Assembly: GCA_022393335.1 (NCBI GenBank)
Contig: JAJEKB010021384.1
Coordinates: forward strand, 1,358,564 to 1,422,563
Direction of reading: 5' to 3'
Origin: Macrotrachela quadricornifera
Lineage: Eukaryota > Rotifera > Eurotatoria > Philodinida > Philodinidae
Length of the DNA: 64,000 nucleotides
Shown: positions 8,536 to 64,000 of the stretch, piece after piece
Layout of the letters: each line of letters opens with the position of its first letter
How positions within the stretch are numbered: position 1 is the first letter of the stretch
Notes under the pieces: generated by a model
The model's database searches: none
Seen by the model: the letters and a program-made list of their open reading frames with translations, nothing else
What the model was told of the DNA's origin: nothing
Position numbers and translations under genes: made by a program

Positions 8536-10998
8536 ATGGCACAAGAACCTACAACAATGAGTACACCATCAATATCTGAAGTTAAAAATATGACAATAGA
8601 GTGTTTACAAGAGTGTCTAGCCATTGGTGTCCAAGCATCTGAATTACTGCAAGATGAACATGTTTCGGGTCATACTGATAATAAAAATAGTCCACCCTAT
8701 ATTGTTCAAAGTCTTAGGATGGAAATTGAAAAAGTACAAAACTTTGAATTGCGAATGCCAATCATAGCGCCAATGAAAGCTGGTAAATCAACAATTCTTA
8801 ATGCCGTTGTAGGTCAACATTTATTACCAACACGTAATGCAGCTATGACATCAATACCAACTGAAATTGTATTAAATGTAGCAAATTTAAAGGATGACAA
8901 ATATATTGAACCTTATTTGAAATTACATAACAAATTTATTGATCGAATGACTCTATTACAAGATGATTTATGCAAGTATCTCAATGAGAAGACATTTAAT
9001 TATGATGATTTAAAAAGAAAACTTGAACGGCATTCTCATTTAGTTGAAATAGCAGAAAATATTCGTAATAAATCACCAAAGTGTCCTATATTGAATAGTC
9101 AAATTTCTGGTATTGAAAGTATACGATTGGTTTTAACATTCATTAACGATGTTATTCGTATTTATGAGTATCTAATTCGGAATGATGCGTTTAGTGATAC
9201 AAGAGAATTTCTAGACGTATTACCACGAATATATGCACCATATATTGCTATTGGGGATGAGAAATATATTCATAATTCACTTGGAAATTTAGTTCTAGTA
9301 GACACACCTGGTCCAAACGAAGCAACGGCATCAAGTTTTCTTAAAGAAGTATTTCATAGAGAACTCGACAAAGCAGCAGTCATATTGGTTGTGCTCAACT
9401 TTAAATCATTAAATACTGAAATAGACGAATCAATTGCCAAAGGTATCCAAACAATTCGCGATGCAAAACATGACGATGACTCATTGTATGCGATTGTAAA
9501 TCAAGTTGATCAGCGACGAAAAGGGGATATGACATCTCAACAAATACAGGAATTTGTTGCTCGACGTTTCAATATTGGCGATCAAAATTCACTTAGTCAA
9601 GAACACAAAAGGATATTCGAAACTCAGGCACTTCGAGCTCTATTAGCCAAACAATTTTTGTATGAAATGACATTCTATGAAAAAAACAATCCTGATGAAG
9701 AATTTAATGTTGCAAAAATTTCATGCGGAGAAGATTTTATTACTGAAGTGTATGGTATCTCATGGGATGAAAAAGCGACACGTGACGAGTTGAAAATCAT
9801 GGCTGAAAAATTATGGAAAAAATCAGGATTTGAGTTATTTTTATATGAAGCTGTTGAACATTTGATTGCAAAAGCAGCACCGCGTTGTTTGAAATCAGCG
9901 ATAAATCAATTTCAATACAATAATTTACAATTGAGAGATAATCTTCAAATAAGAAAAAATGCAATGACCAAAGATGCTGCTAAATTACGTCGTCAGATTG
10001 ATGAATTAAAAAATGATTCAAGAGAACTCGAACAAGTAATGGATTCTCAAAAGAAAACGTTAGAGATTGCCACGAAACAGATGTTGCAATTGATTGAGAG
10101 ATACTTTTATCAAGCAAAAGCCGATGGAAAAAAAGAATTGAATCGTTTGTTTGATCAGGCGGAAATTACAGAGGGAGAATTTGAAAGGAATATGGGACGT
10201 CATTTCCACTCGATAACAGGTACGATCGGCAATGTGTTACGAACGTATTTTGGCACATTAATACAGACTGGTTTCACTACTGTAGCTGATCTTGCAACAG
10301 AATTTGCTCGGCTACGTGCTACTAATAAGCTAAGATTTAGAGATGAAGAGCAAGCTAATGATTGGGTACGAACAATTCAACAACGAGTAGCCATGATAAG
10401 TGAAAAAGCATTAGCAAACCTTCGAACAACTGTTAATTCTGAATGTGAAGCACTATGTAATAGGTTAAATCAAAATCTGAACCAAACTACCGAAAAAATA
10501 TTAATTCGAGCGCAAAATCGTTTGATGGAAACATTCGATTTGCATATACCTAAGCCACATTCATTCGAAACAAAAATTATGGTACAAGATAACATTGAAT
10601 ATGAGATAGAAAAAGTTTATCGTCCCTGGTGGCTGTTATGGTTAATAGAAATTCCGGCCGCTGAAGGTGTCCAAGAACCTTCTTCATATGTGGTACATCT
10701 AGGAACTTTAGAACGTCAATGCAAAGACTTATTACAGAAAAACATGGACGCCATTGAAAAAGAACTTCAAACTTACGTTACTAATCTTTTACATCAAACA
10801 TTTATTCGACATTTTGAAGAATTGCAGCAGTTTCTTCAACATTATCAGAATAGTTTAAATCAATCTTTGAAAGATCAAGAACGCACCGAAGAAGACAGAA
10901 AAATATTTCAAGACAAAATCGATGTTTTACTTGAGAAGTTGAGCAAAAACTATATTGAAATCCAACATCCTGCAGATGTACTTCGTACGATTACATAG
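8536..10998 (+). CDS. Bacterial-type dynamin-like GTPase, 820 aa, intronless
   Basis: Large GTPase of the dynamin superfamily, expected to bind GTP and remodel or tether membranes. Seen directly: P-loop PMKAGKST (residues 79-86), MTSIPTE (104-110) as likely switch I, DTPGP (256-260), NQVD specificity motif (322-325), a long amphipathic/coiled-coil stalk starting near 476, and a hydrophobic WWLLWL patch near 698 that could be a membrane-inserting paddle. The PMKAGKST...LPTRNxxMTSxPT pattern resembles bacterial dynamin-like proteins of the CrfC/YjdA type more than eukaryotic dynamins or mitofusins (from family knowledge, not a search). One uninterrupted frame without introns, beside spliced genes, fits acquisition from bacteria. 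Start is the first in-frame ATG after a short AT-rich leader. A polyadenylation signal lies at 11137. Confidence 0.85.
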   Translation: MAQEPTTMSTPSISEVKNMTIECLQECLAIGVQASELLQDEHVSGHTDNKNSPPYIVQSLRMEIEKVQNFELRMPIIAPMKAGKSTILNAVVGQHLLPTRNAAMTSIPTEIVLNVANLKDDKYIEPYLKLHNKFIDRMTLLQDDLCKYLNEKTFNYDDLKRKLERHSHLVEIAENIRNKSPKCPILNSQISGIESIRLVLTFINDVIRIYEYLIRNDAFSDTREFLDVLPRIYAPYIAIGDEKYIHNSLGNLVLVDTPGPNEATASSFLKEVFHRELDKAAVILVVLNFKSLNTEIDESIAKGIQTIRDAKHDDDSLYAIVNQVDQRRKGDMTSQQIQEFVARRFNIGDQNSLSQEHKRIFETQALRALLAKQFLYEMTFYEKNNPDEEFNVAKISCGEDFITEVYGISWDEKATRDELKIMAEKLWKKSGFELFLYEAVEHLIAKAAPRCLKSAINQFQYNNLQLRDNLQIRKNAMTKDAAKLRRQIDELKNDSRELEQVMDSQKKTLEIATKQMLQLIERYFYQAKADGKKELNRLFDQAEITEGEFERNMGRHFHSITGTIGNVLRTYFGTLIQTGFTTVADLATEFARLRATNKLRFRDEEQANDWVRTIQQRVAMISEKALANLRTTVNSECEALCNRLNQNLNQTTEKILIRAQNRLMETFDLHIPKPHSFETKIMVQDNIEYEIEKVYRPWWLLWLIEIPAAEGVQEPSSYVVHLGTLERQCKDLLQKNMDAIEKELQTYVTNLLHQTFIRHFEELQQFLQHYQNSLNQSLKDQERTEEDRKIFQDKIDVLLEKLSKNYIEIQHPADVLRTIT

Positions 10999-14848: not shown

Positions 14849-17800
14849 ATGTATAGAATAATGCAAAATACAATATTCTACTTAGTTTTATTTCTATTAT
14901 TGTTTCCTGTACGAGTGTCAATGATAAAACCTAATTTTCGTCTCTCTTATACAAATGCTGTAAATACGAATTCATTATACCATCATTGTTTGTTGCACAA
15001 TGTATATTATCGCCATCTAAGTAAGCCAAAACCCGAAGCCAAATTTATTAATTTACGCCAAGTAATTCTTTACTGTATACAATCGTCTGATTTATCATTG
15101 AATCTATCGATGGTTGATGAACAACATACTATTCATGGAACACCAGTTACATTTGAAACGCTAAAAGAAGAAAATATAACAAGTCATCAATTATATTTAT
15201 TATCTACACCTATTGATGTTGTTGAACTATATCAAGAATTTCTCGAAGGTTCTAATTCATCTTTGTCAACACAAAGAATCTACAATTGTTCGCAGCCATG
15301 GTTTGGTGAATATTGTCAATATTCATTTAATTTGATACAGCCATTCAATACTATTGTGGAAACCTATTCATTTAGATCTCCATTTGAAGAATATGAATTA
15401 CCGAGAAGTAGAACATGTTATACATTCATCAAATGTAATCGTGGTTCATCACCAGCTTGTCTCGATTGGCGTGAAATATGTGATGGAAAAATCGATTGTT
15501 TTGACGACGCTCAAGATGAAATTGGCTGTGATCAATTAGATAAAAACGAATGTAAAGAAGATGAGTTTCGTTGTAATGATGGATTGTGTATTCCAAAAGA
15601 ATTTTTCAACGATAATTATTATGTCTGTGATTGCGTCGATCGTTCAGATGAAAAGTATTCCGACGGTGAAACATTCCCGATAAATGATGCGGTTTGTCAC
15701 TACGACAACAGTTTTCGTTGCGAAGAGACAGCATGTCGAAATGAACGCACGTTATCGTGTGGTAATGGTGAATGTGTTGCAGGGTATTGCGAAAGTGAAC
15801 GCGACGCTGTATTAACAGAAGCAATATTATCTTGGAATGCAAATCTACATTTGTCATTTGACTGTTGGTCAAGTTTGATTTGCTTGCAACATGAAAATAA
15901 TCAAATATGGAACCTTTATAGACATACTAACTGTACACATATAATCGATCATGAAATTCTCTTTCGAAGAAATTGTCCGTCAGTTTTCTTTTTTCCTTCA
16001 CAGCCGATATTATTGGGTCATGTTCGCTTTGCTTATATAAATAATCAAACAAATCAATATGTATTTAACACACTTGTACCTTATTATATATGCTATAATC
16101 AAGCACTCTGTGAATGGTTACCGAGTACTGTATTGTACAATGGTTCAACTTGTCGACGTTACTCTGAATTGGACATCGAGGAAACGTTGACTGATAGAAA
16201 TTCCTTCTCATATCTTTTACTAAAATTTTTTCTCAAATGTTCAACAACAAGAGTTACATATGCTGAATGTCCAAAATCAAAACCGTACAGATGCACAAAC
16301 TCATCTAAATGTATTGCCTTGAATAGACTCATGGATGGATTTGTTGATTGTTTTCAAGGAGATGATGAACAAATTGAAGATAGTTGCTCATTACCGGACA
16401 TTAAGTACCGATTTCGATGTCTCTCAGAAAATAAATGCATACCTATGACTAGAGTTTATAGCAATACACCGTTATGTGTAGGAAAAGAAGATATGTCACC
16501 AGCGTATGACATATCTCAGTCGATTTTTTATTTATCATTTACATCACTTTGTGATGGTTTTGTTGAGCATAACGCAATCGATGGACTTAATTACACTGAT
16601 GAAATGGACTGCAATGATTGGCCATGTATCAATGCATATACACGATGTGACGGTAAATGGAATTGTCGTAATGCAGCCGATGAGGCAAATTGCTCAAACA
16701 ATCCATGTCGTCCAAATGGACATCCTTGTATATTACTACTTACCCGCAATTTAACTTGTTTGCCATTATCGCGAATTAATGATGGTCATATTGATTGTGT
16801 AGGTGGTTATGATGAACAAGATCGTTGCGGATTAATGTCAGAAACACGAATAGCCATGACATATCGCTGTTCTGATGAAATAAAGTGTATTAATATTCGT
16901 TTTCTATGTGACCCAATATATCCATACTGTTCGTCAGGTGAGGACGAGCGTCTGTGGTGTAATGGCTGGTCGAATTCATCGTATCCGAATAATCGCTTCA
17001 AACTTACTCCACGATCACTCAATGTGAATGAAAGGTCATATTTGGAACATATACGCCTCAGTTTTCACAAAACTAGAGCTTATTTCACTGTGAAAAATCA
17101 TGTAACATATCCTCCTACAAATTCGATTGACAACGATTATAATTTTACTGAAATAACAACCCTACAAAATTTTCAAGAATCTAAATTTAGCATCGAAGAG
17201 GAGTATACTACAGATCATGAATTGAGTCGAGTTTGTAATCATGGAATTCCTATCTATCGACATAGTTTCAATGAACAATATTGTTTATGTCCACCAGCTT
17301 ATTTCGGTCATCGATGTCAAAATCAAAGTCAACGAGTTAGTGTTACATTAATGTTTCGAACAGTCGAATGGCAAACAATATTTAATTTTGTTATTATGCT
17401 TGTTGATGAAAATGCAAATATTCATTCTTCAGAACAAATTGATTATTTGTCCGTACGAGATTGTCAAAGAAAATTCTATCTATATCTCCTCTATTTATCG
17501 CGACCAAAATATACTAATCAAACGTATTATGTACGTATTGATGTCTATAATAAAGAAGATATGGTATATTATTTTTCAAATTTATATCCTATTCGATATT
17601 TATTCTTACCTGTATATCGTCTATCATTATTAGTCTTTGTTCCAATGCGAGAAGTTATAAAAAAATCGACCAATTGTCCATTGAAATGTCTCTATGGACA
17701 ATGTGAATACTATTCAAATGCCGACGAATACTTTTGTCGATGTTATAATGGATATTCTGGAAGATTATGTACAATAAAAAATTCATGTAATTGTGCCTCT

Positions 17801-19666
17801 GGTTCATTGTGTATTGGTGTAGTAAACAATCAAGCAATATGTGTATGTCCTATTGGTAAATTTGGACCACGTTGTTATCTGAAAAGAACAGTATGCATTT
17901 CGAATAAATGTACTGTTAATGGTCGATGTATTCCTGATGATGATAAGTATGCTGAAACAGAATATTTTTGTCTTTGTTCAGAAAACTATACAGGTTCAAT
18001 ATGTAACAGTGTCAAAAGAAAAAATGAATTTCAATTTTCTGAAGCTATAGTTATTCCACAAACGATTCTAGTTCATTTTATTTATGTTACACCAAAACTA
18101 GAGTCGTATAATTTACATGTTCCTTTTGATAGAGAACCTGAACAGATACCTCCTGATCCAACCCAAATAACCATGATATCACAAATAAAGTTTCATGAAA
18201 CTTCTGCTTTTATTTATTATGGAGGAACATTTCATCTTATATTTATAGAATTTCATAAAAATCATTATCTTGCTCTACTTCAACATAACAATACATTGCC
18301 ATTGAACATTATTACGACTATTATTCCTCAGCATCGTTGTTTATCAATTAAAGATCTATTATCTAATCATATTCAAAGTTTGCCACGTTGGTATCGCGCA
18401 AAATATTATCATATTCCATGCCAGAAGTATTCGAATCTAGTATGTTTTAGTGATAATGATTATTTTATGTGTTTATGTGATGTTGATCGACATGCAAATT
18501 GTTTCAAATTTGATTATCATTCAGTTTACAACTGTTTAGGATATAATTATTGTGAAAATAATGGTCAATGTTATGTTGACAATAGTACTTGTCCAACTTC
18601 ATCATCATGTCTTTGTAAAGAATGTTATTATGGTAGTCGATGTCAATTCACTACAAAAGGTTTCGGTTTATCATTAGATGATATTCTTGGTTATAGTATT
18701 TGGCCACATGTTCCCTTTCCAGGACAACCGAGAATTGTAAAAATCACCATGGTTATAACGGTAGTGATGTTCATTGCTGGCATAATCAACTCTTCATTGT
18801 CTTATATTACATTTTCGAGAAAAGAATCACTTGCTATTGGCTCTGGTCTTTATCTATTGGTATCATCAATTACATCTCTTATAATGATAATATTATTTAC
18901 TATGAAGTTTTTGTTACTCGTCTTTTCTCAAATGTCATTAATTATCAACACTTCATTTCTGTTCGTAAATTGTATTTGTATCGACATGTTCTTGAAAGCA
19001 TTTTTAGCCATTGGAGAATGGTTAAACGCATGTGTAAGTGTTGAAAGAATGTTAACTGTCAAATTAGAACTTAACTTTAATAAATCGAAAAGTAAAAAGG
19101 TTGCAACAAGAGTAATTATTGGAATCTATCTGTTTACCTTAATAAGTTTTATTCATGAGCCCTTTTCTCGTCATTTACTCAACGTTACAGAAGAAGAACG
19201 AATATGGTGTGTAGTTCGCTATTCATTATCGGTGGAAAGATATGGTTCATTTATCAATATATTTCATTTTATTCTACCACTTTTTATTAATTTCATTTCT
19301 ACAATATTTATGATTGGTCTAATAGCTCAAAAGAAATCGAGAGCTCGTCAAGAACTAACATATAAAGAACATTTATACAAACAATTACGTGTAAATAAAC
19401 ATCAATTATTAAGTTCATTTACTTTAATTATCATTGATATACCACGTCTTATTATTTCATATGTTTCTGAATGTATGAAATCAACAAGACATCCTTGGTT
19501 GTATCTAGTTGGTTATTTTATTTCATTCATTCCACCATTATTGGTATTCGTATTATTTGTTCTACCATCTCATTTTTATCGAAAACAGTTCAGCAAAGCA
19601 ATGATTGATATTAAAAAAACTTACAAAATCGGCTTTACTGCAAAAAAATATCACAATAAACAGTAA
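14849..19666 (+). CDS. LDLa/EGF ectodomain seven-transmembrane receptor, 1605 aa
   Basis: Cell-surface receptor; ligand unknown. The N-terminus carries a signal peptide (hydrophobic FYLVLFLLLFPVRVS). The ectodomain has LDL-receptor class A modules with paired cysteines and acidic calcium-binding ends, e.g. CDGKIDCFDDAQDEIGC (about 213-229), CNDGLCIPKEFF...DRSDE (about 241-268) and further copies from about 478 to 730. EGF-like modules follow: CLCPPAYFGHRC (about 810), CRCYNGYSGRLC (about 963), CVCPIGKFGPRC, CLCSENYTGSIC and CKECYYGSRC (about 1255). A rhodopsin-like seven-helix bundle starts near 1297 and ends near 1575, with VSVERML in place of DRY after helix 3 and HEPFSRHL after helix 4. 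Single exon of 4.8 kb. This architecture is frequent in bdelloids; the exact ligand class cannot be read from sequence. Confidence 0.85.
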   Translation: MYRIMQNTIFYLVLFLLLFPVRVSMIKPNFRLSYTNAVNTNSLYHHCLLHNVYYRHLSKPKPEAKFINLRQVILYCIQSSDLSLNLSMVDEQHTIHGTPVTFETLKEENITSHQLYLLSTPIDVVELYQEFLEGSNSSLSTQRIYNCSQPWFGEYCQYSFNLIQPFNTIVETYSFRSPFEEYELPRSRTCYTFIKCNRGSSPACLDWREICDGKIDCFDDAQDEIGCDQLDKNECKEDEFRCNDGLCIPKEFFNDNYYVCDCVDRSDEKYSDGETFPINDAVCHYDNSFRCEETACRNERTLSCGNGECVAGYCESERDAVLTEAILSWNANLHLSFDCWSSLICLQHENNQIWNLYRHTNCTHIIDHEILFRRNCPSVFFFPSQPILLGHVRFAYINNQTNQYVFNTLVPYYICYNQALCEWLPSTVLYNGSTCRRYSELDIEETLTDRNSFSYLLLKFFLKCSTTRVTYAECPKSKPYRCTNSSKCIALNRLMDGFVDCFQGDDEQIEDSCSLPDIKYRFRCLSENKCIPMTRVYSNTPLCVGKEDMSPAYDISQSIFYLSFTSLCDGFVEHNAIDGLNYTDEMDCNDWPCINAYTRCDGKWNCRNAADEANCSNNPCRPNGHPCILLLTRNLTCLPLSRINDGHIDCVGGYDEQDRCGLMSETRIAMTYRCSDEIKCINIRFLCDPIYPYCSSGEDERLWCNGWSNSSYPNNRFKLTPRSLNVNERSYLEHIRLSFHKTRAYFTVKNHVTYPPTNSIDNDYNFTEITTLQNFQESKFSIEEEYTTDHELSRVCNHGIPIYRHSFNEQYCLCPPAYFGHRCQNQSQRVSVTLMFRTVEWQTIFNFVIMLVDENANIHSSEQIDYLSVRDCQRKFYLYLLYLSRPKYTNQTYYVRIDVYNKEDMVYYFSNLYPIRYLFLPVYRLSLLVFVPMREVIKKSTNCPLKCLYGQCEYYSNADEYFCRCYNGYSGRLCTIKNSCNCASGSLCIGVVNNQAICVCPIGKFGPRCYLKRTVCISNKCTVNGRCIPDDDKYAETEYFCLCSENYTGSICNSVKRKNEFQFSEAIVIPQTILVHFIYVTPKLESYNLHVPFDREPEQIPPDPTQITMISQIKFHETSAFIYYGGTFHLIFIEFHKNHYLALLQHNNTLPLNIITTIIPQHRCLSIKDLLSNHIQSLPRWYRAKYYHIPCQKYSNLVCFSDNDYFMCLCDVDRHANCFKFDYHSVYNCLGYNYCENNGQCYVDNSTCPTSSSCLCKECYYGSRCQFTTKGFGLSLDDILGYSIWPHVPFPGQPRIVKITMVITVVMFIAGIINSSLSYITFSRKESLAIGSGLYLLVSSITSLIMIILFTMKFLLLVFSQMSLIINTSFLFVNCICIDMFLKAFLAIGEWLNACVSVERMLTVKLELNFNKSKSKKVATRVIIGIYLFTLISFIHEPFSRHLLNVTEEERIWCVVRYSLSVERYGSFINIFHFILPLFINFISTIFMIGLIAQKKSRARQELTYKEHLYKQLRVNKHQLLSSFTLIIIDIPRLIISYVSECMKSTRHPWLYLVGYFISFIPPLLVFVLFVLPSHFYRKQFSKAMIDIKKTYKIGFTAKKYHNKQ

Positions 19667-37296: not shown

Positions 37297-39283
37297 TTAC
37301 CCACGAAAAGTCACATAAAATAAGGAGAAATGGATAAAAAAAATTTCCATACTATATAACAGAATATCACATCAAGCGCAGGAAGGAAAAAAATGAAAAT
37401 ATATCTATATAAACATACATCTAAAAAGATATATATTTATCACATCTCTCGATTTCTGCTTATGAAAGCGCGAATGCATGTTTGATTTCTCCTGAAATTT
37501 TTTTAATTTCTGTTAGAAAATAACCATTTCTGCTAGGTACGATCCTTAGGATGAAAATGATAGGATTGGTTTCTTTGGTTGTTTTAAGGAAGCATTTCTT
37601 CTTGACTTTGTGGGGGTAAACCATTTCTGCTGAAAATGGAACAATTTCACACTTTTGGGGGATGTTGTCCTGTCCTCAGCTGATCAAGAGAAATCATATT
37701 TCAAGTTTAGAATCAATGATATTAATTAGTTTTTACATAAGTCCACCGCTTGCTGTCTTCTTACAAGAGATAATAATACAAACTTTTTCTTGAAATTAGA
37801 AATACATGTACTTGTTGATAGTTCGTGTTACTTCTTCTTAATATCCATAAATTGAAAAACAATGCAAAAGAGTTGAGGCAAAAGCTTCGAGTACTTTAAG
37901 ATAGATAATGATATCTAATGGCTTAAAACAGTTTCGTTTTGCGTATACAATGCAAATAAAAAAGCATAGGGACATGAAATAATATATGATTTTTATTCAT
38001 TCTCCTAATCACTCCTAATCATTACTAAACACAACTAATCACCGCCAATCACTCTTAATCATTACCAAACAATACTAATCTCCCCAAATCACTGCTAATC
38101 ACTTAAAATCATATCTAGTCAATAATTAGCTGTTTCCCCCTTGCTATAAGATCCCTTTATGTATATAATGCGAACTGTCTGATTGTCTATTAGCGAATAA
38201 AAGCTAAAGGATAGATGTGAAAATTTGCACGAAAAAGCGTTGGTGCAGTATGCGCGGGCTCTCATTAGTTATTTTATATGTGATAGGCCGAACAAATTCG
38301 TTTCGATTCAACCTGTTAATACTGCCGCATCTGGAGGTCAGGTTGATCTATAAAGTATCATTGTAACATAACAATCATCATTGGCAAGTCAAATACAAAG
38401 TTTTAGAGTATTAACTCCATTACAAATCCTAGCATACGCAAATCTTTCATGAACCATCACTTCGTCTAGTCCAGCACAAACTTTCAGAGTGTTAAGCTCA
38501 CTATATATTACTGCTCAACGATATCCACTACGAAAAGCACCTCTGAGATAGCAATAGTTTCCTGCACTAAACAACAGATAATTTGAATAGCTAGTACACA
38601 TTTTCAAGCGAACGACTAACGAATTTCGGCTTGAAACTAAATAATAAGAGATTCAATAGTTATTGTCGAAGAGAAAACAGTAGAGAGTTAAGCCTTGAAG
38701 TCCACTGTTTTTCCATTGGTTACTGCATGTCTTTCCATTCTTATAAAATCTTGTTGAAAAGTGGCAATCAACACAATCAAGATCATATGTTATTTATATA
38801 ATTTATATGTGTTATTTCTTCTCTTCTCTTTCTTCAGCGAGAGTTATTTGAGTAAATGCTTTTTTATTTACCATCGAGTTTCAGAACAAAAAGCAGAGAG
38901 AAGGCCCGTTATCATTTCTAAAAGATTAACAATATTGGTTGTCCAGATGTATATGAAATAACATATTTTTCTGTGAACTTTTTTGATGCTGATTCTAAAT
39001 AGAGTCTTATCTCGTGACCTTTAAAGACGTTTGAAAATCTGTCGTCAGTCTGGCAACTTACTGTGAATTTTTAAAAAAAATAATTACATGTTCATTTATA
39101 CGTGGCTCTTTGATCTCACTCATACCGGACATACTTTATATAACTTTGAAGGTAGACAGATAAGCCATTTTTTGAAGTAACACGATTTATTTCAAGAGTA
39201 GAGTAGTGTAAAATTATAATTTTCTGACAAACAAATATAAAAGAATACATATACTTCTGTCTGTCAATGTATTCTTTTATATA
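37297..39283. other. Intergenic stretch containing a 10-bp-period repeat
   Basis: Apart from the decamer array at 38001-38120 nothing coding is supported. At about 38392 and 38472 two similar segments (CAAGTCAAATACAAAGTTTT and CTAGTCCAGCACAAACTTTC, each followed by AGAGT(A/G)TTAA) form a diverged direct repeat. The frame 38761-38961 has no recognisable feature beyond a hydrophobic start. Confidence 0.35.
38001..38120. repeat. Decanucleotide minisatellite, 12 units, AATC at the end of most units
   Basis: Read in steps of ten from 38001, nine units end in AATC, two (38021-38030 and 38061-38070) in AAAC and the last in AGTC. Examples are TCTCCTAATC, ACTCCTAATC, ATTACTAAAC, ACAACTAATC and ACCGCCAATC. 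A 40-bp super-period is visible because ATTACTAAAC-ACAACTAATC recurs as ATTACCAAAC-AATACTAATC exactly four units later. The ten-base phase is never lost. Confidence 0.75.
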
Positions 39284-40291
39284 TTATTCTTTCTTGCAAA
39301 GAAAGAAACTTGTTTGTGGTCTCAGAATATGACAGATTCTATCTTCTTTTTTGAATCTACTACCAAAAATTTCTCTTTCATTATCTCCAGGTCCTTCAGG
39401 ATGACACATAAATAACATTTTCATTACTACTTGTGTCGGCTCGTACTTGAATGTAATTTCTACTAGTTCACTTTGAGCATTTGTATGACACAAATAGAAT
39501 GAACATTGACCTTGTTCACTCATACGCTTGTGACATGTAACCGAATTTGATTTTGAACAAAGTGAGACTGATTGTTTGACATTAATAATTGTGACATTAA
39601 ATAGCTTTGGAAATGGTAAAAGTGATTCATAGTCAGTTACATCATTTGGAATAATTTGTATCAGATTATTGATGCCACTCAAAGTTTTCATGCCCCAATC
39701 CATGAGTTTTTCTCTATCTTCAAAACATGATATCTCGATTCCTTGATGATGCTGCGAGACAGCTGGTTGACAAACATCTTCTTTGTATAAATCGCACTCA
39801 TGATTAGCATTTAGATCCCAAGTCAAATTCGGGATTGAAAAAAAGCCACCAATGATAATGGAACTATTGAGAGTCATCAGTTCTCCATGAAGATGTTCAA
39901 TACCTTTCCTATGTGCAAGAACCAGACTTGAGAGATGTTGTTCGCACGCTGGGCTTAACACATTTGATCTTTTTCTCCTACGTTTACAACGTGAACTTAA
40001 ACCGATTGATCTTTTTCTTTTACCACCCTTGAAAAGAGAAATGTGTATTTTTTAAGATATATTTTTCATGTCAGATGTACTATATGTGAAATATTATACA
40101 CTTCAACTTACCTTGTTACAACTACCCGGAGTGTGGACGCCTGCATCTAGAAGTTCTTGTTGAAATAATCTTTGAGCCGTATCGATATTACCACCTGATC
40201 TACTACAATCGGCCAACAGAGGTGAGTTGGACGTTGAGTGAACCAAATACATAAATAATGACGATAGTAATACAATGAAATAAATCTTCAT
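39284..40291 (-). CDS. Secreted protein with basic processing sites, two exons, 307 aa
   Basis: Exon 1 spans 40291-40112 and exon 2 spans 40027-39284. The 84-bp intron has a GTAAGT donor and a TTCTCTTTTCAAG acceptor, and both exons meet in phase 0. The N-terminus MKIYFIVLLSSLFMYLVHS is a signal peptide. Just after the junction come KRKRS and KRRRKRS, consensus sites for furin-like proprotein convertases, suggesting release of a mature C-terminal chain of about 220 residues with eight or more cysteines (e.g. NANHECDLYKEDVC, CSFYLCHTNAQ, MLFMCHPEGPG). Likely an extracellular signalling or matrix protein. Family unknown to me. The adjacent divergent receptor at 40639 starts 348 bp away, so the two may share a promoter region; pairing as ligand and receptor is only a thought. 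Confidence 0.7.
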
Positions 40292-44554: not shown

Positions 44555-47500
44555 TTAGTCTCCTGGAATGACCCCATCAACATTAGCCCAAGCAAGAGGA
44601 CAAATATCTGTTTGTGTTCCCCACCAATTTGGAAATGTTATGTTATTATAATTAAATATGAAAAAAATCAAAAATGTAGTAATGGATGTTCCCATAAACA
44701 TACAAATTTGAAATATAAATGCATATCGATCAAACCACCAACGAGGAATTATTTTTCGAAATATAATTCCAAGTAATATCCAACCAGGAGCAATGACATA
44801 ACCATAATTAATATCTGCCAAACTTATAAAATATATGAACATTATAGGAATATGTATTAATCTTATAAATTTTATATTGAAAAATAATTTGTGAGCAATC
44901 CAAATAAATATTGGTAAAACACCAATAGTAATCATCAACCAGAATAACCATGGATAAACAGACTTTAAACCAATTATTGCAGTGAGATCTATATATAACA
45001 TACAAATATCAAGATAATTACATGTTATCTACTCATATTTATACAACGATGACTATCATAGTTCAATTAAATCAATAGGCAAATTAATGAATACGAAAGA
45101 AACAGTAATGGAAAAGTTGATGGGTCCATAAGGACCCCAGGCTAATAAATGACAAGTAATATATAAAATCGTCATTGTTTTATTATGGAACTATAGAGGT
45201 TCTAGAGAAGACTTAACTGCAAGAAGAAGAAAAAGAACTACAAGTAACTTGAGTGATATCTACTCAGTCTCCTTTTTTACTTTGTTGTCGCATTCTAGTT
45301 TTCGAACGTTTGAGATGCTGTATCGTATACTCACGAGAAAGTCGCCCGAAGCGATCATAAACTTTTGGTTTGATACTTTGTCTATCGGTAGGACCGGCTG
45401 AGACTAGAAAGCATACTGAACATTAAGGACCCAAGTGCCTACCTTTTAGAGTTATGACCGTTTTACTGTATTTTACCTTGTGCACGATACTTATCAAAAA
45501 AAATTAAATGACGAAATTTCGATCTGAGATTCTCTCCATCGATAAATCAGAAGGTCTTTAGAATACCCTAAAATTTTCAGTATAAACAAGTGTTCTCTTT
45601 CGGAGATAAAAAAGATACAGTGAAACTTGCTTTTCTGGTTTCTTGACAACATCGCCTTATGTTTTGAGGTATTTTTTCACATTTAGGGGCAACTGGATCG
45701 GATTAACTGATGTTATCAGGGTACTTTTTACTGAGTTTTTCTAATGCATATCACACAGGACAAAGTTTGATCTAAAGCCACGAATACAACAGATTAATAT
45801 GAATCTTGCTAAGATCCGGATGGACCCCAAGTGGACAACAAGCGAACAGTTTGATTTGTTCTGCTGACGTTATTAATATATTCCATTAAGTGTTTCTATA
45901 GCATACCCAAAGAGGTATAGTTTGATCTCTTATTACATACATAGAGTATCAAAATGGAACTGGTTAGTGTCCATACGGACTCCAGGTGGTCTTATGAGGA
46001 TTAATATTCTTTACTAATTTGAATTATTATTTTCTAAGAAAAAAATATCTAACCTTGGTAAGATATGGTCACAATAGCGGGTAATACCGTTGTACAACTC
46101 CAATCTGTGCCAATACAAAATTTTTTTTTATTAGATATTAACGAACGTGTGACTATATAGGCCACTGTTGATGATATAATAGTAGATATTAATTGTATAT
46201 TAAACAATATTTTTGGAGATATTTTCATATAATGAGCTAATTTAAAATTTTGAAGAAGAACTATTGCTTGTCTTTGAGTGGAATATGAAAAAACCGTAAA
46301 AGTATAATTTACTATTGGTTGATTATGAAATAAGAATCCACCTAAGAAAAAAAATAATGTTGATGAATCGAAAAAAACTGCACCTTGAGCCTAAAGAATA
46401 TTTTTATTAATTATAACATATAAATCTGTTGAATAATTATATTCACTTACTTGTACAATTGTTGCAGGGATAGTAACTACTGTACTGAGACCAATTGCAA
46501 CAAACATATAATACCATGGTAATAAACGAGAATAATGACAAATCAAACAAGCACCGATAAATGTTATTAGAAAAAGAATTCCATATACCCATTCTGGTAC
46601 TTCTTTATACTGACTAATTAATGTACAATGTACATCGTTTTGACGATTTTTTAATGATGTTCGAGAATATTTTAAGATTTTTCGACCATGAAAAAGAATT
46701 GTATGAATAAATAAAGATATACATACACCCAAATATATATGTGTCACTATTGCAGGTACAATAGAAAATTGAACAGTATTTTTACCATTTGGAGATGGAT
46801 AATAAAAAGAATCACCTATTATTGGAAGTTTAGACCAATTGGCTACATTTGAATAATACAATATAGGTATTATAATATAACCAACAAGAACAAAACCAAT
46901 AATCATATTTACATAAGTCCACCAAGGTTGAATAAGAGGAGACATACTTTCAAAAAGATATCGATTCCAATTTAATGAAACTGAACCCAAAAATAATGCA
47001 TTTGGTGCTGTTAATTGAGAAAGAATTGTTGAATTTTGATTTATTAAACACCACCATGGAAAAGAATCTAATTTTGGAAAAATCAAACCTGGAAACCAGT
47101 GATAAATAAATGCAAAAAACAATACAATAACTAAGAAATGACGTCGAGTTAAATTCATCCATCGAAAACTTAATGGAGATTCTTCTTCATTCATTGTTCG
47201 TAATGCTGCTATGTAAGGAAATATCCAGAGCCATATCATTTCTGATGGCCAAACAAGAATACGACGAAGTATACCTTACAAATAACATTTAATTATTATC
47301 AACTAATACAAAAAAAAATATTGAGAATTATTCTTTAAGAGTCGCCCTCTCAGAGGAGCCATATATTTTAGATGAAATTTTCAGGGATGGTTTTAAATTA
47401 AAACTAGTTGCCTCGCGTAACTTTTTATCATACAGAATTTTGAAAGTTGATCCCGTTTGTTTTTTACGAGCATCTTAATAGTCATGGTATTGACTGTTCG

Positions 47501-53915: not shown

Positions 53916-54798
53916 ATGTTATTTTATCTATTCATAATCTTTCAAATGATACATTCAATTTTTTGTGTGATAACTTGTAATAACTGTCCAATTGATGCAA
54001 ATAATTTCGATTATTTCGTTACATCTGATCGTATACCTGACAAACTTAATGATTGTATATTAGAACAAATTACGGATACTTGCATTATTGATCTTGTATG
54101 CAGTCGAAATCCAGATAAGACTTAAATAACATTCCGTTCCGAGGATATTGGAAGAACTATATATACTGAACAAATGCTCAGTACTTTTGTTAATTGAGAA
54201 AATCAAAATTCTAGTTTCATATGGTCACAATCAATTTCATATATGTTTTACAAATGAATGTAATAGCTTGACTGTATTAAAACGTTTGTTAGATTCATTA
54301 ACATTGTATGATAATCTTCAAGTTCTTTCATATCTTCTTATACGAAAACAACCATTTGACGGTCATTGGTGTACGGTTTTTGGAAATAGTACTTCACTTG
54401 AATGTGCAACTACGATACTACCGACCTCTTGTCGACAATGCTATTTTCAAGGATTGAGTTATCAAGGCCCACTAGAAATATGTGCAACCTGTTTAACCGA
54501 TGATATTGATGAGACATTTATATCACATGAAGTTAACTTCAAAATGACTGATCGAAAACGTGATGATCATTGGTTGATTACATGTCAATCAAATGATTGT
54601 AATACAGTTGATAATGGCAATCTTGTTCGTCAAAATAGTATATCCAATTTTGATTTTGACAAATTTTTTGATGATGGTACTACTTCAACTACAATATCAT
54701 CTACTTTAACTACAATACCATCTATTTCAACTACAATACTATCTAGTAACAAAATTATATTAATTTTTATTATTTTGCTCATAATACTTCATAATTAA
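53916..54798 (+). pseudogene. Secreted/GPI-anchored two-domain Ly6-like protein, interrupted
   Basis: An ATG at 53916 gives a signal peptide (MLFYLFIIFQMIHSIFCVI) followed by cysteine-rich sequence. TAA at 54123-54125 and a frame change before about 54210 interrupt the first domain. From there the frame is clean: HICFTNECNS, then CRQCYFQGLSYQGPLEICATC and CQSNDCNT. The CxxxxCN endings are the signature of Ly6/uPAR three-finger domains, giving two tandem domains. A Thr/Ser-rich linker and a C-terminal hydrophobic tail (IILIFIILLIILHN) fit a GPI-anchor signal. Disabled in the first domain unless the stop and shift are sequencing errors or an unrecognised intron. Partner unknown. Confidence 0.5.
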
Positions 54799-56896: not shown

Positions 56897-59800
56897 TTAA
56901 GCTTGATAAGTTATTTTCAAGTATGGCAAAGCTTGTGCATAACGATAAACAATATATTCTTTAAAAGTGAATTTTGTTCCACGAACAGAATGATAATCTT
57001 TTGGAGCCGAAGTCAATTGTTTATTTATTGAAGGTTGTATAGATTCTTTACCTAATATGACTTTATTATAAAACATCACACATTTGTGTTTGCCATGTTT
57101 TGCAGCTGTATAGTTGTGAGATTTTTGAGGATTATCAGCAAAATAAGCACCGGTACCTAAACAATGACATCATTTTGAAAAGTGAAGTGTTAATTTTTTT
57201 TTCTTTTTCGGACTGTCATCATTTTTATTTAAATGATATTTATCAATCCGAAAGTCAAAATTGTTTATATCAAATTTTTTAAGTAATTAACCTTCATTTT
57301 TGTTATTTATCTGATGATGAGCACATTTGCTTTGTTTATATCACATATCAATGTTATCAACATTATGGGAGAGATTAAAGCATGTTCTATACTCCGTTGA
57401 TCTTGAGTTACTGTTCGCAATCAGCTATTGATAAGAACTTGAGTTCTTATATTAGATTCTCCTTCTTTTCTGATTTCTTGCATAGAAAGTAAATAGGCTC
57501 TTAGTTGGACAATCAACAAGTCTCGAAAGGACAACAAGCAAATAAGCAGATATACACTTACCCCATGCTCCGTCTTGACTGAAAAAACGATCGTCATAAC
57601 CAACTTCTATTATACCTTTAATAGCATCATCAGTATCGGTGTCATGAAACAGTTTTTGTTCGTTTGGATTACGATTTGGACATTCTCTTGCAATGATTTT
57701 TTTCATTGATTCATACGCATCTTCCAAAACAGGATTTTTAATTTCTTCAATAGAAATTATTTTAATCGGTGGTTGAATCACTTGCATCTTATGTGTTACT
57801 GCCTTGTATAAAGTTGATGTAGAAGGTAGCGGTACGAGAAGTGCAAAATATTTTGGATGGGGTGATGGTATATAATCAATTGGTTCTCCGATTTGTGTCC
57901 ATTGTCGTAAAATCATTTTATCAATACGTTCTTTAACAAGTGTATCTATTGGACGAAGTACTTGAAAACGTTTATTTTTGATATTTTCAACAATCGTTTC
58001 TAATTCAATAGAATAGGGTGATTGTGTTATATCAATACGCATTCCAATTTCTCGAGGATAATCTTTTTCTAATGAAAGATTACTAACATCGAGATCAATA
58101 CGATCATGTGTTAATGCAACATGAGGTTCAATTAGATCCATTGTAAATGGACCTGTTGGTGCATCTTTATCAATTAGTAAAATATATCTCCAATCTTCTC
58201 GTTTTACTTCACATGTTATATCAAATTTATATAATTCATCTCGAAATTTATCAATATCAAAATACATATTCAATGGTAAATGACAATCTAAATCACCTGG
58301 AACAACTTCTTCGTCTATACGAGGTATTAATTGACCATTTGCATTAATTCGATATTTAATCCAATCTATTGGATTGTGTAAAAGAGTAGATGGTCGATTT
58401 TTATAATCTCCTACGATCCAATCACGAACGAAACCACCTTCTAATTTACATTGAAATTTACATACGGCTATCCAAGCTACAACTTCCATTCGTGATTCAC
58501 GTGTTGCTTCATTACTTTTCACACCTTTATATAGATCAACCATTGTTCGCTGACTATCGGTTATACGCGAAATTTTTTCTTCGATTTTCTGATAAGTTTT
58601 ACGCATTTTTGGATGAAGTAGACGCGGTAGAACACCTAAAATATCACATGAGAGATAAAAATAAACAAGTTTCTTTAACTAGATATATTAGTTTTCTTCA
58701 TCGGACGTAAAAAGAAATTCTAGATTGGTGTACTTACCTGCCATCGGAGGTCGAATTACAACGCAACGTTTTAACCAAGATATAAATGAATCAAATTCTT
58801 TCTTGACATTTTTATTTTCAGAATCTCGTCCTTCAACTGTAATTTCACAAGTTTTTGTGGCCGGATTATTCTTAACCATTATTTTCACTTGTTTTTCGGC
58901 CTCCCATCGCCATTGCATTGGTTGAAATATGTATGTCATCTTTGTTACACTTTCGAGATTTCTAGATAAATTGTCAAATTCAGCTGTATTTGGTTTGCAT
59001 GTATTCTCCAATTGGAAATTCATTATCGTTACCATTCCTTTTCTTATTTCCAATTCATCATTAAAAACCGTACATACGGCACCATCTAGTGCAATAGTTT
59101 TCTTGTTCAATAGTGCATTGATGAAACTGGATAAAGTTGATCGAATTTTTGAAAAAATATTTTTTCCATGTAAATGAGTTTCTTCCTCAACAGTAAGATC
59201 AATATTACGCTTTAATATATATTTGACCCATGATGGTTTTAATTCGCCAACAAATGAGATAACTGCTTTTGAACGAATTGCTGTTGAATAGCGAACATCT
59301 CTAGCTAGTACGATAGATACAGGTGCTTGACTTATATGGCGTGTTAGAGTAGATTGAAGATCTAATACAGCTTTATCATCATCATCATTATTTTGAACTT
59401 CATTTAGATTTTTGTATCGTATGTATCGATGAGTTCTTTCATGTAATTCTTTCATTGAAACGAATACATTATCACTATATCCAGCTAATAATGATTGTGC
59501 TATACGTTTCCAATTTCTAGATTGAATTTGAGATTTTTGACGATAATCAGCTGATAGATTAAAAGCTTTTTCTAAAGTGTTATAACGTCTAAGTGCTTGT
59601 CGAATGATGTGTTGAATACTGTTTAATCCTTTCGCTTCACAAAATTCTGGTATTTGAGATTGATTCAATGAAGCAGATTGTTTCACAAGTAATATTTCAT
59701 TCATAACATTTAATAATGTCATAAAATCTCCATCTGGACTTTTCATTGATTGTGGAATATTTTTTAATAGAGCTGTTGTATTTAAAACACTGAGAATAGA

Positions 59801-62800
59801 TGAAAGACAAATAAGATCACGTCCACAATTATATTTATTCAATGCTGCTAATACTGATTTGGACATAGCTAATGTACCAAAATCAGGTAACTTAGCTAGA
59901 CATTCACCTTCGTCAGTAAAATGATTACTGGGAGCTGTTTCCAAAATATCTAGTAAAAAAAATTAGTATACTATTATGATACTTAATACTGATGAGATTA
60001 ACTCTCGCATACGATGAAACATCGTAGTAAAGCTACTGTATCTACGGTAATGATGAGTATTCATATATTACTCACTTAATATTCTGAGTTCTTCTACCGT
60101 TGCATTCATAGCCTTTTGTGATGGTGGATCAGGCAGAAATGCTTGTAGATAATGTAATCCACGTTTAATTGGTGATCTTCTCAAGGAAAATTCCATATTT
60201 GTCAAATCTGATACACATATGTGAGGTGTTGGAAAGGGCTTATCTTCTAATCGAAAATCATACAAATAATAATATTCTCCAGATCTTGTTCTACCCAATC
60301 GACCGAGACGTTGTTTTATGGTTGATTCAGCTGCTCGAACTTGTTCCAGCACAGTTCGCTTTGATTCAGGATTATAAATCGGTATATTAACCATACCAGT
60401 ATCAATAACATATTTCAAAGATGGAAATGTCAATGAAGTTTCAGCAACTGTAGTTGAAAAGAATACACTTCCAATTTCAATGTATGATTGCTGAGCAGAA
60501 GCCGATTGTGATTGTATTAATGGATAAGCTTTAATTGTTTCATGACTTAATTCCGCTAATAAACGACAGCATTGATGAACTTCTGAAACAGAATTAACAA
60601 AGCATAAAATTTGATCATTTCGTTGACGTTTTCTATATAATTCTTGTACAACATCTAAAATGTTTTGATTTAGTCGAGGAATTTTGTCTACACGATATCG
60701 AGTATTGGATTGTATCATTTGAAATTCATCAAAATCGTTATTTAAAATACGACGAAAAAGTCGAGGTACAGATTGATCAAGAGTAGCAGATGAAATTATA
60801 AGTTTCATTCTCGATTTTAGATTTGGTTTTAAACTCAATAATCTAGCTAATAATGCTAAACAAATATCAATATTAACTGAACGCTCATGAACTTCATCAA
60901 TAAAAAATACAATTGATTTGTTTACTTGAGTGTGTTCTGTAATAAAATTTTCATTATATAAAAGAGATTCTTTGAGTAAACCATCAGTTAAATAAAGAAT
61001 TTTACCATTTGCATTTTCTTCATCACCACTCACTGCCCATCCTGCTATTTTCTGATCTGATTTACCCGTATCCATTTCGATTGTTTTATTAACATGTTCG
61101 GATATCATTTTACAAGGTAATCGACGAGGTTGAGTTACAAGAACTTTATCATAACCTTCTGCTATAAGCAATGCTGGTACTAAACTTGATTTTCCTAGAA
61201 ATAAATTTCATATGTTATTAGAAGAATGAAAAGCACAATATAGAATAGTTAAATTTACCTGATCCTGTTGATGTCGTGATTGTTATTACAGTATTTGTTT
61301 GAATTTTATCTAATAAATCTTTTGAGGATTCAAACAAAGGTAATTGTACTGTAAAACAAGAATAGTAGATCATTATTTGTTGTAATAAGATTGGTATTAA
61401 ACTAAAATGTTGTAATTCATGACCTTGATAAGCTGGATTTGTTTTCAATGTTATTTTAATTTGTTCGAGAAAATATTTAATTGTATTGATAGATTTTATT
61501 GTTGGTTTTTGATCAGTTTTTAATCGTTGAAATGAGACATTTTGTTTTATAAATTCATCTAGTGCTCGATTTTTGAGTTCATTAATTTCGTTCTCAAATG
61601 AATTTCTCTCTAAGAATTCATTAGTATATGTTCGTAATTCAATCCAAGGTGGATTTGATATTCCCCGAATTGATTGTTCTGTTAATAATTTCGCTTTTTC
61701 TCGAATTGAATCTTTGAATCTATTAACATATTCATTATTCTTTTCTTCTAATAATTCAATTAAAGTTTTCATATATTGTTTCCAAGAATATGTTTTCGAG
61801 TTAACTTGAACTAAATTTGAAGTGATTGATTTTGTGATTCGTTTTAAATATCGTTGATAGAATTCTTTTCCTGAATTATATGAATTGAATAGATTGATCA
61901 ATCGTTTGAAAGCATTTTTAAATATTGTATGATGATCTATGAAGCCAGTTAGAGTAATCTTAAATGTCTCGTTTTCTTGTGCAAATATTAATTTTGGTAT
62001 TCGCTTAGAAAAATATTCGTCGATACCAGAGATACTTTCCTTTAAATAATTGTCAAAGAATTCAAATTTTGGCACTATGAAATCATGCATAATTTCGATT
62101 TGAATATCGTTATAGTTGAGAGTTTGAATACGTTTCTCAATTTGTTTCAATATATTTCTTTTCTCTTCTATTTGTTTTATATCATCAATCAATTTTGTGT
62201 TTTGTTCAAGAGCAACACGTAAATTTTCTTCATGCTGTTGTCTTTCGAGCTCATATTTTTGATCAATTTCTGCTTTGATAATCGTCCATTGTTCTTCTTT
62301 TTCTCGTTGTTGAAGACGAAATTGATTGATTTGTTGTTTAGCTGTATTCAGTTCTTCTTTATGTTTCTGTTCTATTTCATCTATTAGAGAATTTTGTCTT
62401 ACAATTTGAACTGTTTCGATATCGGATGAATCTTTCAAATTTTCAATTCTTTCATCCAGTTCAGAAGTTACTGTTAAATCTTCTACAAACTCGGTTATTT
62501 CAACTGAACGAGGTTGTTGCGTATCTGTGACTTTCGTTTTGCTATCATTGAAATATTCATCGGCATTGACCATATTTTCATGTTCAGTATTATGTATGGC
62601 TAAAAGAATTGATATATCTTCATTATTTATCATCGTATCCAATGATATCGAAATAGTTTGAGAAGATTTCTCTATCTTAAATAAGATTTCGATTGAATTT
62701 ATAATAAATATAAATATGTTTACCTCATTATTTGTCTCATCAATATCATTTGATGAGTTATATTCTTCATCATTTATATCATCATTTGGTTCTTGTTCAA

Positions 62801-64000
62801 TAGGATTATTATGAGTTGATTGAGATACTTCTCTGAGACGTTTAGTAGTCAATGGTATTGGTTCTAGATTTGTTAATGTTTGAAAATTATTAATATTTGT
62901 TATACGATTTTTTTTCAGATCATTATTCGATACTAATTTTGGTATCCATCGAAGAAAACCTGATATTGTATTTTGTTTATTATTAAATGAAAATTTCATT
63001 AAATCAAATTGTATTCGATCATCAGATAGACCATCTACACGTAAATTAATACACATTCGTCGATTATTCATTGCTTGATCTAATAATGTGTTTGTATTTG
63101 CATCACAATTATACCAAGAATTAAGTTGAATATTAGATCTATGATCTTCTGTTGTTGAAAGATCGATAGCTATTAAACATGTTTCACTATTTGAGTTTGA
63201 TAAGGGATATTTTATTAGTAGAATTTGCCATAGAGCATAACAATCGAAATTGAAAATTGATGAACCACGACATCGACTCCATGCTAAATCTTCATTTTGA
63301 TCTTGATCTCTTCCCGATCGTAGAAATCGAAATGTTGAAATAGTATAAATAGTTGAAGATATTGTGATACAAATTTCTTGTTTAAATTGTTGATCAAATT
63401 TGACAATCAATGATTCATTTAGTTCTTTACATACATCGATTTCAAACAAAAACCATTTCGAATCAGAAAATGGTTTATATTCCCAAATACAATCTTTAAT
63501 TGATTGATTTGTTCCTTCAATAATAGGAGTTGAAGGAAATTTATGTTCTCGTTTTGTATAACCAAGATTAAGAAAATTTTGAAAATATTCAATAATATGT
63601 TGATGATGTTCACCATTCATAATTGCTGTTTCTTCGGCTTGATTTAGAATAAAATAATTCGCATCATGCTCGATTAAGTATTTAACAATATCTAAATATC
63701 CACCAAAACATGCTGCATGTAATGCAGTTGAAGCAGCTTTTGGTGATACTTGATAATTAGGATCAATAATTATATCCTTTGATAAAGCTTTATCAAGATG
63801 TTGATTTTGAGCATTAACAGAACATTGAGCATCATCGATGAGATATTTAACTAATTGCATGAAATTATTTCTTGCTGCTGAATAGAGTAATGTTGTACCC
63901 CAAGGACCAGGTTTATCTTTTAATGTTGGATATTTCTCGATGAATTTTTTTACCTCAGTTAAATTTCCTTTCCATGCAGCTTGAAAACCATCGAATGAAT
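56897..64000 (-). CDS. Ankyrin / WWE-like / DEAH helicase / nucleotidyltransferase-like / PARP fusion, 5' partial
   Basis: Minus-strand exons: 64000(partial)-61259, 61194-60076, 59949-58738, 58635-57562, 57156-56897, all joined in agreeing phase; an in-frame 54-bp intron at 62723-62670 is likely. About 2100 residues are visible. Order: ankyrin repeats (TALHAACFGGYLDIVKYLIE, 63998-63600); a WWE-like segment (IWEYKPF ... AWSRCRGSS, about 63490-63255); a coiled coil (62400-62110); a DEAH-type helicase core with TSTGSGKSS split by the first intron, TQPRR, FFIDEVHERS (about 60900), SSATLD, TTVAETSL and QRLGRLGRTRSG (about 60300); an HA2/OB-like region; GGFVRDWIVGD (58438) with PGDLDCHL (about 58290), like the GGxVRD...DxD signature of CCA-adding/poly(A)-polymerase folds; and a PARP domain (LFHDT at 57650, GTGAYFAD across the last intron, KEYIVYRYAQALPYL, stop). 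PARP triad H-Y-E is intact, with HDT in place of the usual HGT. Likely an RNA-acting ADP-ribosyltransferase; substrates unknown. Confidence 0.85.

What the first reader, a model, noticed from the sequence alone, without database searches (positions are those of the whole stretch)
56897..64000. A single protein fusing ankyrin repeats, WWE-like module, DEAH helicase, nucleotidyltransferase-like module and PARP
Five exons join in phase into one polypeptide that ends in a PARP catalytic domain and contains a complete DEAH-box helicase (all core motifs readable). Helicase plus PARP in one chain is not an arrangement I know as a described animal family. With ankyrin and WWE-like parts in front it resembles a self-contained sensor: binding, RNA unwinding, ADP-ribosylation. 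A role in RNA repair, desiccation-damage response or anti-viral/anti-transposon defence is an inference only.
Basis: partly seen in the sequence, partly recalled or inferred. Interest (0 to 1): 0.92.

Follow-up and report, generated by a model that had tools for sequence, protein, structure and literature searches.

The report
Helicase–nucleotidyltransferase–PARP fusion protein in rotifers
A microscopic freshwater animal carries a family of giant proteins that join an RNA-unwinding motor, a probable nucleotide-adding enzyme and an ADP-ribosylating enzyme in one chain, a layout also seen in Euglena; the copy read here looks recently damaged, while a near-twin elsewhere in the genome is open.

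Summary
It is no chance join: a second genomic copy, 96% identical, is open over 2262 codons, and relatives of the same layout occur in nine named bdelloids, unnamed sources and a Euglena gracilis transcript. Active-site residues of helicase, NT and PARP are invariant in 21 of 21 aligned full-length relatives. The PARP is closest to tankyrase, the helicase to HrpA/Prp43. WWE is clear only in relatives. NT has the motif order of CCA-adding/poly(A)-polymerase heads, but profile support is modest.

Corrections: the gene starts outside the window, with an in-frame stop there (codon 125); the Gly after the PARP His (54 of 55 relatives) is Asp; a transposon-like insert lies within about 190 bp upstream. 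The window copy is probably a recently damaged duplicate in a family with 22 long copies here. Searches found no printed description. Function is inferred: RNA-directed defence or surveillance (about 0.45), else RNA-end or damage repair (about 0.3).

The parts
56897..63998 (-). Gene body inside the window (exons 63998-61259, 61194-60076, 59949-58738, 58635-57562, 57156-56897); 5' end outside the window, start codon at the equivalent of 64376, in-frame stop at the equivalent of 64004-64002
63657..63983 (-). Ankyrin repeats (aa 6-114)
   Evidence: Pfam Ank_2 E 2.8e-15
62940..63485 (-). Tandem WWE-like region (about aa 172-353)
   Evidence: aligns with two Pfam WWE stretches of relative P0076; WWE matched in 4 of 21 members; not matched in the window protein itself
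62676..62723 (-). Possible 48-nt in-phase intron, or coding
   Evidence: GT..AG, frame open either way
59549..61343 (-). DExH/RHA helicase core and following helicase-associated part (about aa 886-1420): Walker A at 61192, DEVH at 60898, SAT at 60790, QRLGRLGR from 60313
   Evidence: Helicase_C 3.4e-9; PDB HrpA E 1.1e-34; coordinates
57827..58504 (-). Nucleotidyltransferase-like domain (about aa 1735-1960): GGFVRD at 58438, DLD at 58294, FTMD from 58147, DRIDLDV from 58105
   Evidence: motifs; profile comparison with CCA/poly(A)-polymerase heads; weak DUF5769; coordinates
56897..57793 (-). PARP catalytic domain (aa 1972-2134 and stop), interrupted by intron 4 (57561-57157): His 57646, Tyr 57145, Glu 56959; Asp follows the His where 54 of 55 relatives have Gly
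   Evidence: PF00644 E 7e-14; tankyrase-2 E 5.8e-13; residue census

Best explanation
The locus is one copy of a bdelloid multigene family of single-chain proteins that unite a DExH/RHA RNA helicase, a probable class-II (CCA-adding/poly(A)-polymerase-like) nucleotidyltransferase and a tankyrase-like H-Y-E PARP, behind ankyrin and WWE-like binding modules. Proposed working: the ankyrin part docks on a partner; the helicase loads on structured, foreign or broken RNA and moves along it; the NT domain acts on the RNA 3' end (tailing or resetting it); the PARP marks the bound protein or RNA with ADP-ribose, which WWE modules read to gather more copies. The outcome would be marking and removal of aberrant RNA, as in ZAP/PARP-type antiviral control (comparison recalled). 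Shown: the chain, its motifs and their conservation. Inferred: RNA as substrate, order of steps, NT activity, biological role. The window copy itself is probably a recently damaged duplicate; an open near-twin exists on another contig.
For: One frame through five exons; Pfam and PDB-sequence matches for ankyrin, helicase, PARP. Same layout in bdelloids and, as transcript ORFs, in Euglena (P0123) and another EukProt species (P0113). Catalytic residues of helicase, NT and PARP invariant in 21 of 21 relatives; H, Y and E in 55 of 55 with the PARP end. NT profile scores 28.3 against CCA/poly(A)-polymerase heads, above 60 of 60 column shuffles (max 19.2) and above the 16 alignment windows without NT (max 17.7). 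WWE twice in P0076. 22 long NT-exon copies in this genome, a copy-number pattern common in defence genes (general knowledge). Damage marks of the window copy: stop, PARP Gly to Asp, upstream insert.
Against: No biochemistry, no expression data for this gene, no structure (prediction switched off). hhalign probability for NT is only 10%, with a 28-column core; global mode gave nothing; PolyA_pol matched 0 of 11 members at E up to 10, and the PDB search with the NT alignment found nothing. WWE not matched in the window protein nor in 17 of 21 members. Some members of the wider 41-row alignment depart at single motif sites (for example P0054 and P0055 in the helicase, P0081 and P0084 at the third acid of NT). 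Against long decay of the window copy: Ka/Ks 0.30 to the twin, 27 window-derived versus 30 twin-derived differences, conserved sites broken 2 versus 6 times. The stop could be an assembly error. Expansion alone does not prove defence.
Confidence: 0.45

Rival explanations
1. Desiccation or radiation repair factor: the helicase opens broken structured RNA (or RNA at DNA breaks), the NT domain restores 3' ends (tRNA CCA or short tails), and the PARP signals damage.
For: CCA-enzyme-like motifs; in Adineta vaga 17 PARP genes are over-expressed after radiation and 9 after rehydration (PMC10809525, passages), and two RNA ligases join the radiation response.
Against: The passages seen do not say that members of this family are among those PARPs, and the word helicase does not occur in that main text. 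PMC12220480 reports a PARP gene under-expressed in spaceflight (passages). The PARP is tankyrase-like, not PARP1-like.
Confidence: 0.3
2. Scaffold or signalling enzyme of tankyrase type in which helicase and NT serve as binding modules, without RNA 3'-end chemistry.
For: PARP nearest to tankyrase, ankyrin repeats in front.
Against: Helicase and NT active-site residues are kept in 21 of 21 relatives, which pure binding would not require; no SAM domain.
Confidence: 0.17
3. Two separate genes, with the PARP exon wrongly joined to a helicase gene.
For: PARP is split over two exons. Of 126 proteins held, 26 with the NT motif were printed as lacking the PARP end pattern; one of these (P0037) does have a PARP end, leaving 25.
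Against: 18 of those 25 still contain the first PARP half and stop at or near the intron-4 donor, so they look truncated; the other 7 end earlier. Exon 4 itself holds NT and the first PARP half without a gap. Transcript ORFs P0113 and P0123 hold all three parts.
Confidence: 0.03
4. The window copy is a functional gene as it stands, started at a downstream ATG or through read-through of the stop, rather than a damaged duplicate.
For: Low Ka/Ks to the twin (0.30), no excess of replacements in the window copy; some predicted relatives (P0010 to P0013) also begin within the ankyrin part.
Against: Stop inside a conserved N-terminal stretch, insert close upstream, Asp in place of the PARP Gly.
Confidence: 0.25

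Closest known systems
Tankyrases (PARP5a/b; PARP Clade 4 of PMC2964712)
   Same: Nearest PARP domain in the PDB by sequence (E 5.8e-13), with H-Y-E at the same places; ankyrin repeats in front
   Different: Clade 4 is described with 15 to 18 ankyrin repeats and a SAM domain (passage); here few repeats, no SAM, plus helicase, NT and WWE-like parts
DEAH/RHA RNA helicases (HrpA, Prp43/DHX15)
   Same: Core aligns end to end with HrpA (E 1.1e-34) and Prp43; all core motifs
   Different: DEVH box; scores below the NCBIfam HrpA cut-offs; HA2_N only marginal (2 of 21, best E 0.1)
Class-II nucleotidyltransferases (CCA-adding enzyme, bacterial poly(A) polymerase)
   Same: Order GG-x-VRD, DxD, third acid, R-x-D...N; profile score above all controls
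   Different: Stretch between GGxVRD and DxD is longer; no PF01743 match at E up to 10 in 11 members, weak DUF5769 instead in 8 of 11
WWE-PARP proteins (Clade 3E, for example ZAP/PARP13, PARP12)
   Same: WWE-like domains before a PARP in one chain; ZAP also among the PARP-domain matches, E 0.0013
   Different: Helicase and NT in the chain; Glu of H-Y-E kept, whereas Clade 3E members mostly carry Ile there (passage)

Membership tests
PARP (ARTD) superfamily | PARP catalytic domain by profile | tested here: met
   PF00644 E 7e-14, 52.2 bits against cut-off 26.7; 21 of 21 relatives
PARP (ARTD) superfamily | H-Y-E triad and the Gly after His | tested here: inconclusive
   H, Y, E present in the window copy and in 55 of 55 relatives; Gly present in 54 of 55 relatives but Asp in the window copy
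PARP (ARTD) superfamily | NAD-dependent ADP-ribosylation | not testable with these tools
   needs an assay
Tankyrase (Clade 4) | 15 to 18 ankyrin repeats and SAM before PARP | tested here: not met
   ankyrin match limited to aa 6-114, no SAM match; none among the 25 families shown of 51 for 21 relatives; definition from a passage
DEAH/RHA helicase | Walker A, DExH, SAT, QRxGRxGR | tested here: met
DEAH/RHA helicase | RNA-dependent ATPase or unwinding | not testable with these tools
   needs an assay
Class-II nucleotidyltransferase | GGxVRD, DxD, third acid, RxD motif in order | tested here: met
   window copy and family; assignment of the motifs to this class is partly recalled, compared with rotifer CCA-type exons
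Class-II nucleotidyltransferase | profile or fold similarity | tested here: inconclusive
   score above all controls but hhalign probability 10%; no PF01743; no PDB match; fold prediction unavailable
WWE-domain protein | WWE by profile | tested here: inconclusive
   not in the window protein; 4 of 21 relatives, two stretches over cut-off in P0076
Ankyrin-repeat protein | ankyrin repeats by profile | tested here: met
   Ank_2 57.1 bits, cut-off 27.3
Anti-phage defence families (PADLOC) | match to a known system protein | tested here: inconclusive
   two relatives scanned: P0005 a weak match over ankyrins (1.3e-5) and mad3 at E 0.009; P0123 none

The most novel reading that the evidence does not exclude
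A previously undescribed eukaryotic family that packs helicase, 3'-end nucleotidyltransferase and ADP-ribosyltransferase into one chain, taken by the bdelloid ancestor from a protist of the euglenid-containing or a neighbouring group and expanded into a multigene RNA-defence system: a self-contained machine that unwinds, tails and marks RNA.
Probability: 0.25. Interest if true: 0.88.

Novelty: new variant of a known kind. Interest (0 to 1): 0.62.

Why it matters
If active, one protein would couple RNA unwinding, RNA 3'-end chemistry and ADP-ribosylation, activities that vertebrate antiviral control spreads over separate proteins (ZAP, DHX30, tailing enzymes, PARPs; recalled). It makes testable whether bdelloids, with a large PARP expansion, use ADP-ribosylation against RNA viruses and transposons or in drying damage. 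Its occurrence in Euglena, but in no named non-bdelloid animal among the listed hits, raises the question of horizontal transfer of a ready-made multi-enzyme.

Tried and rejected
Structure prediction of the NT exon was switched off, so no fold search was run. The PDB search with the NT alignment gave nothing at E up to 1. Pfam on 11 NT members gave weak DUF5769 in 8 of 11 and no PF01743. hhalign in global mode was uninformative. PADLOC on two relatives (P0005, P0123) gave one weak match over ankyrins and one marginal match, not taken as a defence assignment. A PARP-less subfamily was considered because one search lists relatives without PF00644; 18 of the 25 such NT-bearing proteins stop at or near the intron-4 donor inside PARP, the other 7 earlier, so I treat them as cut gene models, without proof (its column on the HG motif is unreliable, since the pattern took the first match in the chain, and is not used). 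A long-decayed pseudogene was rejected because replacements are not in excess in the window copy. The genome-contig scan with E. coli PcnB returned 80 loci, nearly all enterobacterial and too alike, so bacterial heads were drawn from 40 genomes of one phylum, 39 of 40 with a match; of 34 loci tried (31 bacterial, 3 rotifer), 33 gave a head (L150 dropped). A DNA search of intron 4 and exon 5 in the own genome did not complete and was left.
Full report
Observation. The window lies in a 450-Mb assembly at C4678:1358564-1422563. On the minus strand, exons 63998-61259, 61194-60076, 59949-58738, 58635-57562 and 57156-56897 carry GT/AG borders (introns of 64, 126, 102 and 405 nt) and join into 2134 residues with a single stop at the end. 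Pfam gives ankyrin repeats (aa 6-114), Helicase_C (1094-1216) and PARP (1972-2112, E 7e-14), each above its cut-off, and nothing for WWE or a nucleotidyltransferase at E up to 1.

Beyond the window. The upstream DNA (L010) holds an ATG-started frame of 124 codons that runs, in the same frame and after one TGA, into the ankyrin part. This N-terminal piece is conserved: blastp against the 120 proteins then held gave 40 rows (output cut at 40), best E 3.8e-31. So the gene starts at the equivalent of 64376 and the stop begins two bases outside the window.

Relatives. A search with aa 900-2134 found 192 proteins at E up to 0.001, of which the best 120 are listed; those listed with an organism are from Rotaria, Adineta and Didymodactylos (nine named species or strains), apart from one bacterial HrpA (Rubritalea marina) near the end of the list. 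Only the 7988 candidates sharing most words were scored. Two further searches, with only the NT-PARP part of the distant members P0100 and P0113, found 36 and 28 proteins, all listed; besides bdelloids these are P0113 and P0123 ('EG_transcript_144'), both from EukProt, and proteins without organism names, P0076, P0100, P0121, P0122, P0124-P0126 and some others. The label EG_transcript goes with Euglena gracilis (7 papers hold both terms, 5 listed, none opened). No named non-bdelloid animal appears in the listed hits; candidates must share exact 5-residue words, so remote homologues could be missed.

Conservation. In an alignment of 21 full-length relatives from bdelloids to Euglena (window copy not included), Walker A GKS, the D, E and H of the DExH box, SAT, Q/R and G/R residues of QRxGRxGR, the GGF-RDW, DLD and two later Asp residues of NT, and the PARP H-G, Y and E are invariant in 21 of 21. 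In a looser 41-row alignment a few members depart at single sites, for example P0054 and P0055 in the helicase and P0081 and P0084 (Glu for Asp) in NT. Among 55 relatives chosen for having the PARP end, His, Tyr and Glu are present in 55 and the Gly after His in 54; the window copy has Asp there. The PARP is nearest to tankyrase-2 (E 5.8e-13), with PARP10 at 2.1e-4; the helicase to HrpA and then Prp43-type proteins.

NT and WWE modules. The NT domain shows the class-II motif order. Against a profile of 33 CCA-adding/poly(A) polymerase heads (30 bacterial, 3 from the rotifer genome) it scores 28.3, above 60 of 60 column-shuffled versions (maximum 19.2); of 18 windows of the family alignment, the two that contain NT score 26.5 and the other 16 at most 17.7. 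Yet the hhalign probability is 10%, the reliable core is 28 columns around GGxVRD, global mode gave nothing, and PolyA_pol matched 0 of 11 members. I call it likely, not shown. The WWE assignment rests on P0076, with two Pfam WWE stretches, on 4 of 21 members at E up to 1 and on the alignment.

Family in this genome. The PARP profile gave 154 matches here (150 of 255 candidates scored). A 763-aa query from exons 3 and 4 gave 55 exon matches, among them 22 long NT-exon copies including the window's; 16 of the 22 have a PARP match at or just after the NT exon in the cut listing, in one of them (C948) over the first half only. Several look like allelic pairs. The nearest copy, C4568:100-108 kb (L041), differs at 280 of 7478 aligned bases, has only in-frame indels in coding parts, is open over 2262 codons and keeps the PARP Gly. 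A third near copy (L042) is interrupted by inserts of about 2.3 kb in the intron-1 region and 1.2 kb in exon 3; one on C4454 is fragmentary in the stretch fetched. Ka/Ks between window copy and twin is 0.30 overall, 0.57 in NT and 0.59 in PARP on few changes. Of 114 amino-acid differences, 27 are derived in the window copy, 30 in the twin and the rest unclear against two Rotaria relatives; conserved sites are broken 2 and 6 times. So there is no sign of long decay.

Upstream insert. Homology to the twin ends at L010 1096 and resumes at L010 4486, places that lie 7 bp apart in the twin (beyond, identity falls to about 80%); the extra 3.4 kb has inverted repeats of 51 bp, 92% alike, near its ends (1125-1174, 4431-4481). 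A DNA-transposon-like element thus begins about 156-185 bp upstream of the start codon. Together with the stop and the Gly change I take the window copy as a recently damaged duplicate (about 0.75).

History. A quick tree of 42 rows (SH-aLRT only; root placed by me on the six rows with the Euglena protein) puts 33 bdelloid-type rows in one clade (100), one of them, P0062, without organism name; next come P0076, then P0100/P0121. By the names, three of the four main subfamilies hold both Adineta and Rotaria, so those duplications predate that split. The program warned of long branches and uneven composition. Unnamed sources leave the donor open; horizontal transfer is plausible, not shown.

Literature. 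Searches combining bdelloid or rotifer, PARP, DEAH/helicase, ankyrin, WWE, fusion and Euglena or euglenozoa terms gave no paper on such a protein: 0 papers; 2; 24 with at least three of four terms (15 listed); 5. Apart from PMC6264785 and PMC4245714 these were seen as listings only. Two PARP surveys, PMC2964712 and PMC4245714, hold the word helicase zero times (passages). PMC6264785 (passages) lists PARP1 and no fusion in what I saw. PMC10809525 reports 17 PARP genes over-expressed after radiation and 9 after rehydration in A. vaga (passages); whether this family is included I could not see. PMC12220480 was seen in passages. Papers outside the open library, and preprints, were not searchable.

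Mechanism. Shown: architecture, motifs, conservation, expansion, damage marks. Inferred: RNA target (from the helicase family), 3'-end chemistry (from the NT motifs), ADP-ribose marking and WWE reading (from the PARP and WWE families; general knowledge). I favour RNA-directed defence or surveillance at about 0.45 and RNA-end or damage repair at about 0.3.

Noticed in passing
39287-40051 (-): Open frame with a Pfam BURP domain match (E 1.2e-6, just over cut-off); BURP is, as I recall, a plant family, so possibly an acquired gene.
   Followed up: no
46394-47275 (-): Open frame with an OPT oligopeptide transporter match (E 7.3e-41); recalled as a plant, fungal and prokaryotic family, so another candidate for acquisition.
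   Followed up: no
8449-10995 (+): 849-aa open frame with a dynamin-family GTPase match (E 5.9e-12).
   Followed up: no
14849-19663 (+): 1605-aa open frame with LDL-receptor class A repeats and a C-terminal 7TM receptor match in one chain.
   Followed up: no
C4678:1423096-1426484 (L010 1097-4485), outside the window: About 3.4-kb insert with 51-bp inverted repeats near its ends close upstream of the gene; it contains a nearly palindromic stretch (L010 2813-3783, 86%).
   Followed up: partly
L042 (C4568:464200-474100): Near copy of the gene with inserts of about 2.3 kb in the intron-1 region and 1.2 kb in exon 3.
   Followed up: partly
whole assembly G000: 154 PARP-profile matches in six frames (150 of 255 candidates scored), a large PARP expansion beyond this family.
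   Followed up: no
38007-38101 and 54680-54745: Two short tandem arrays, periods 40 and 21 bases.
   Followed up: no
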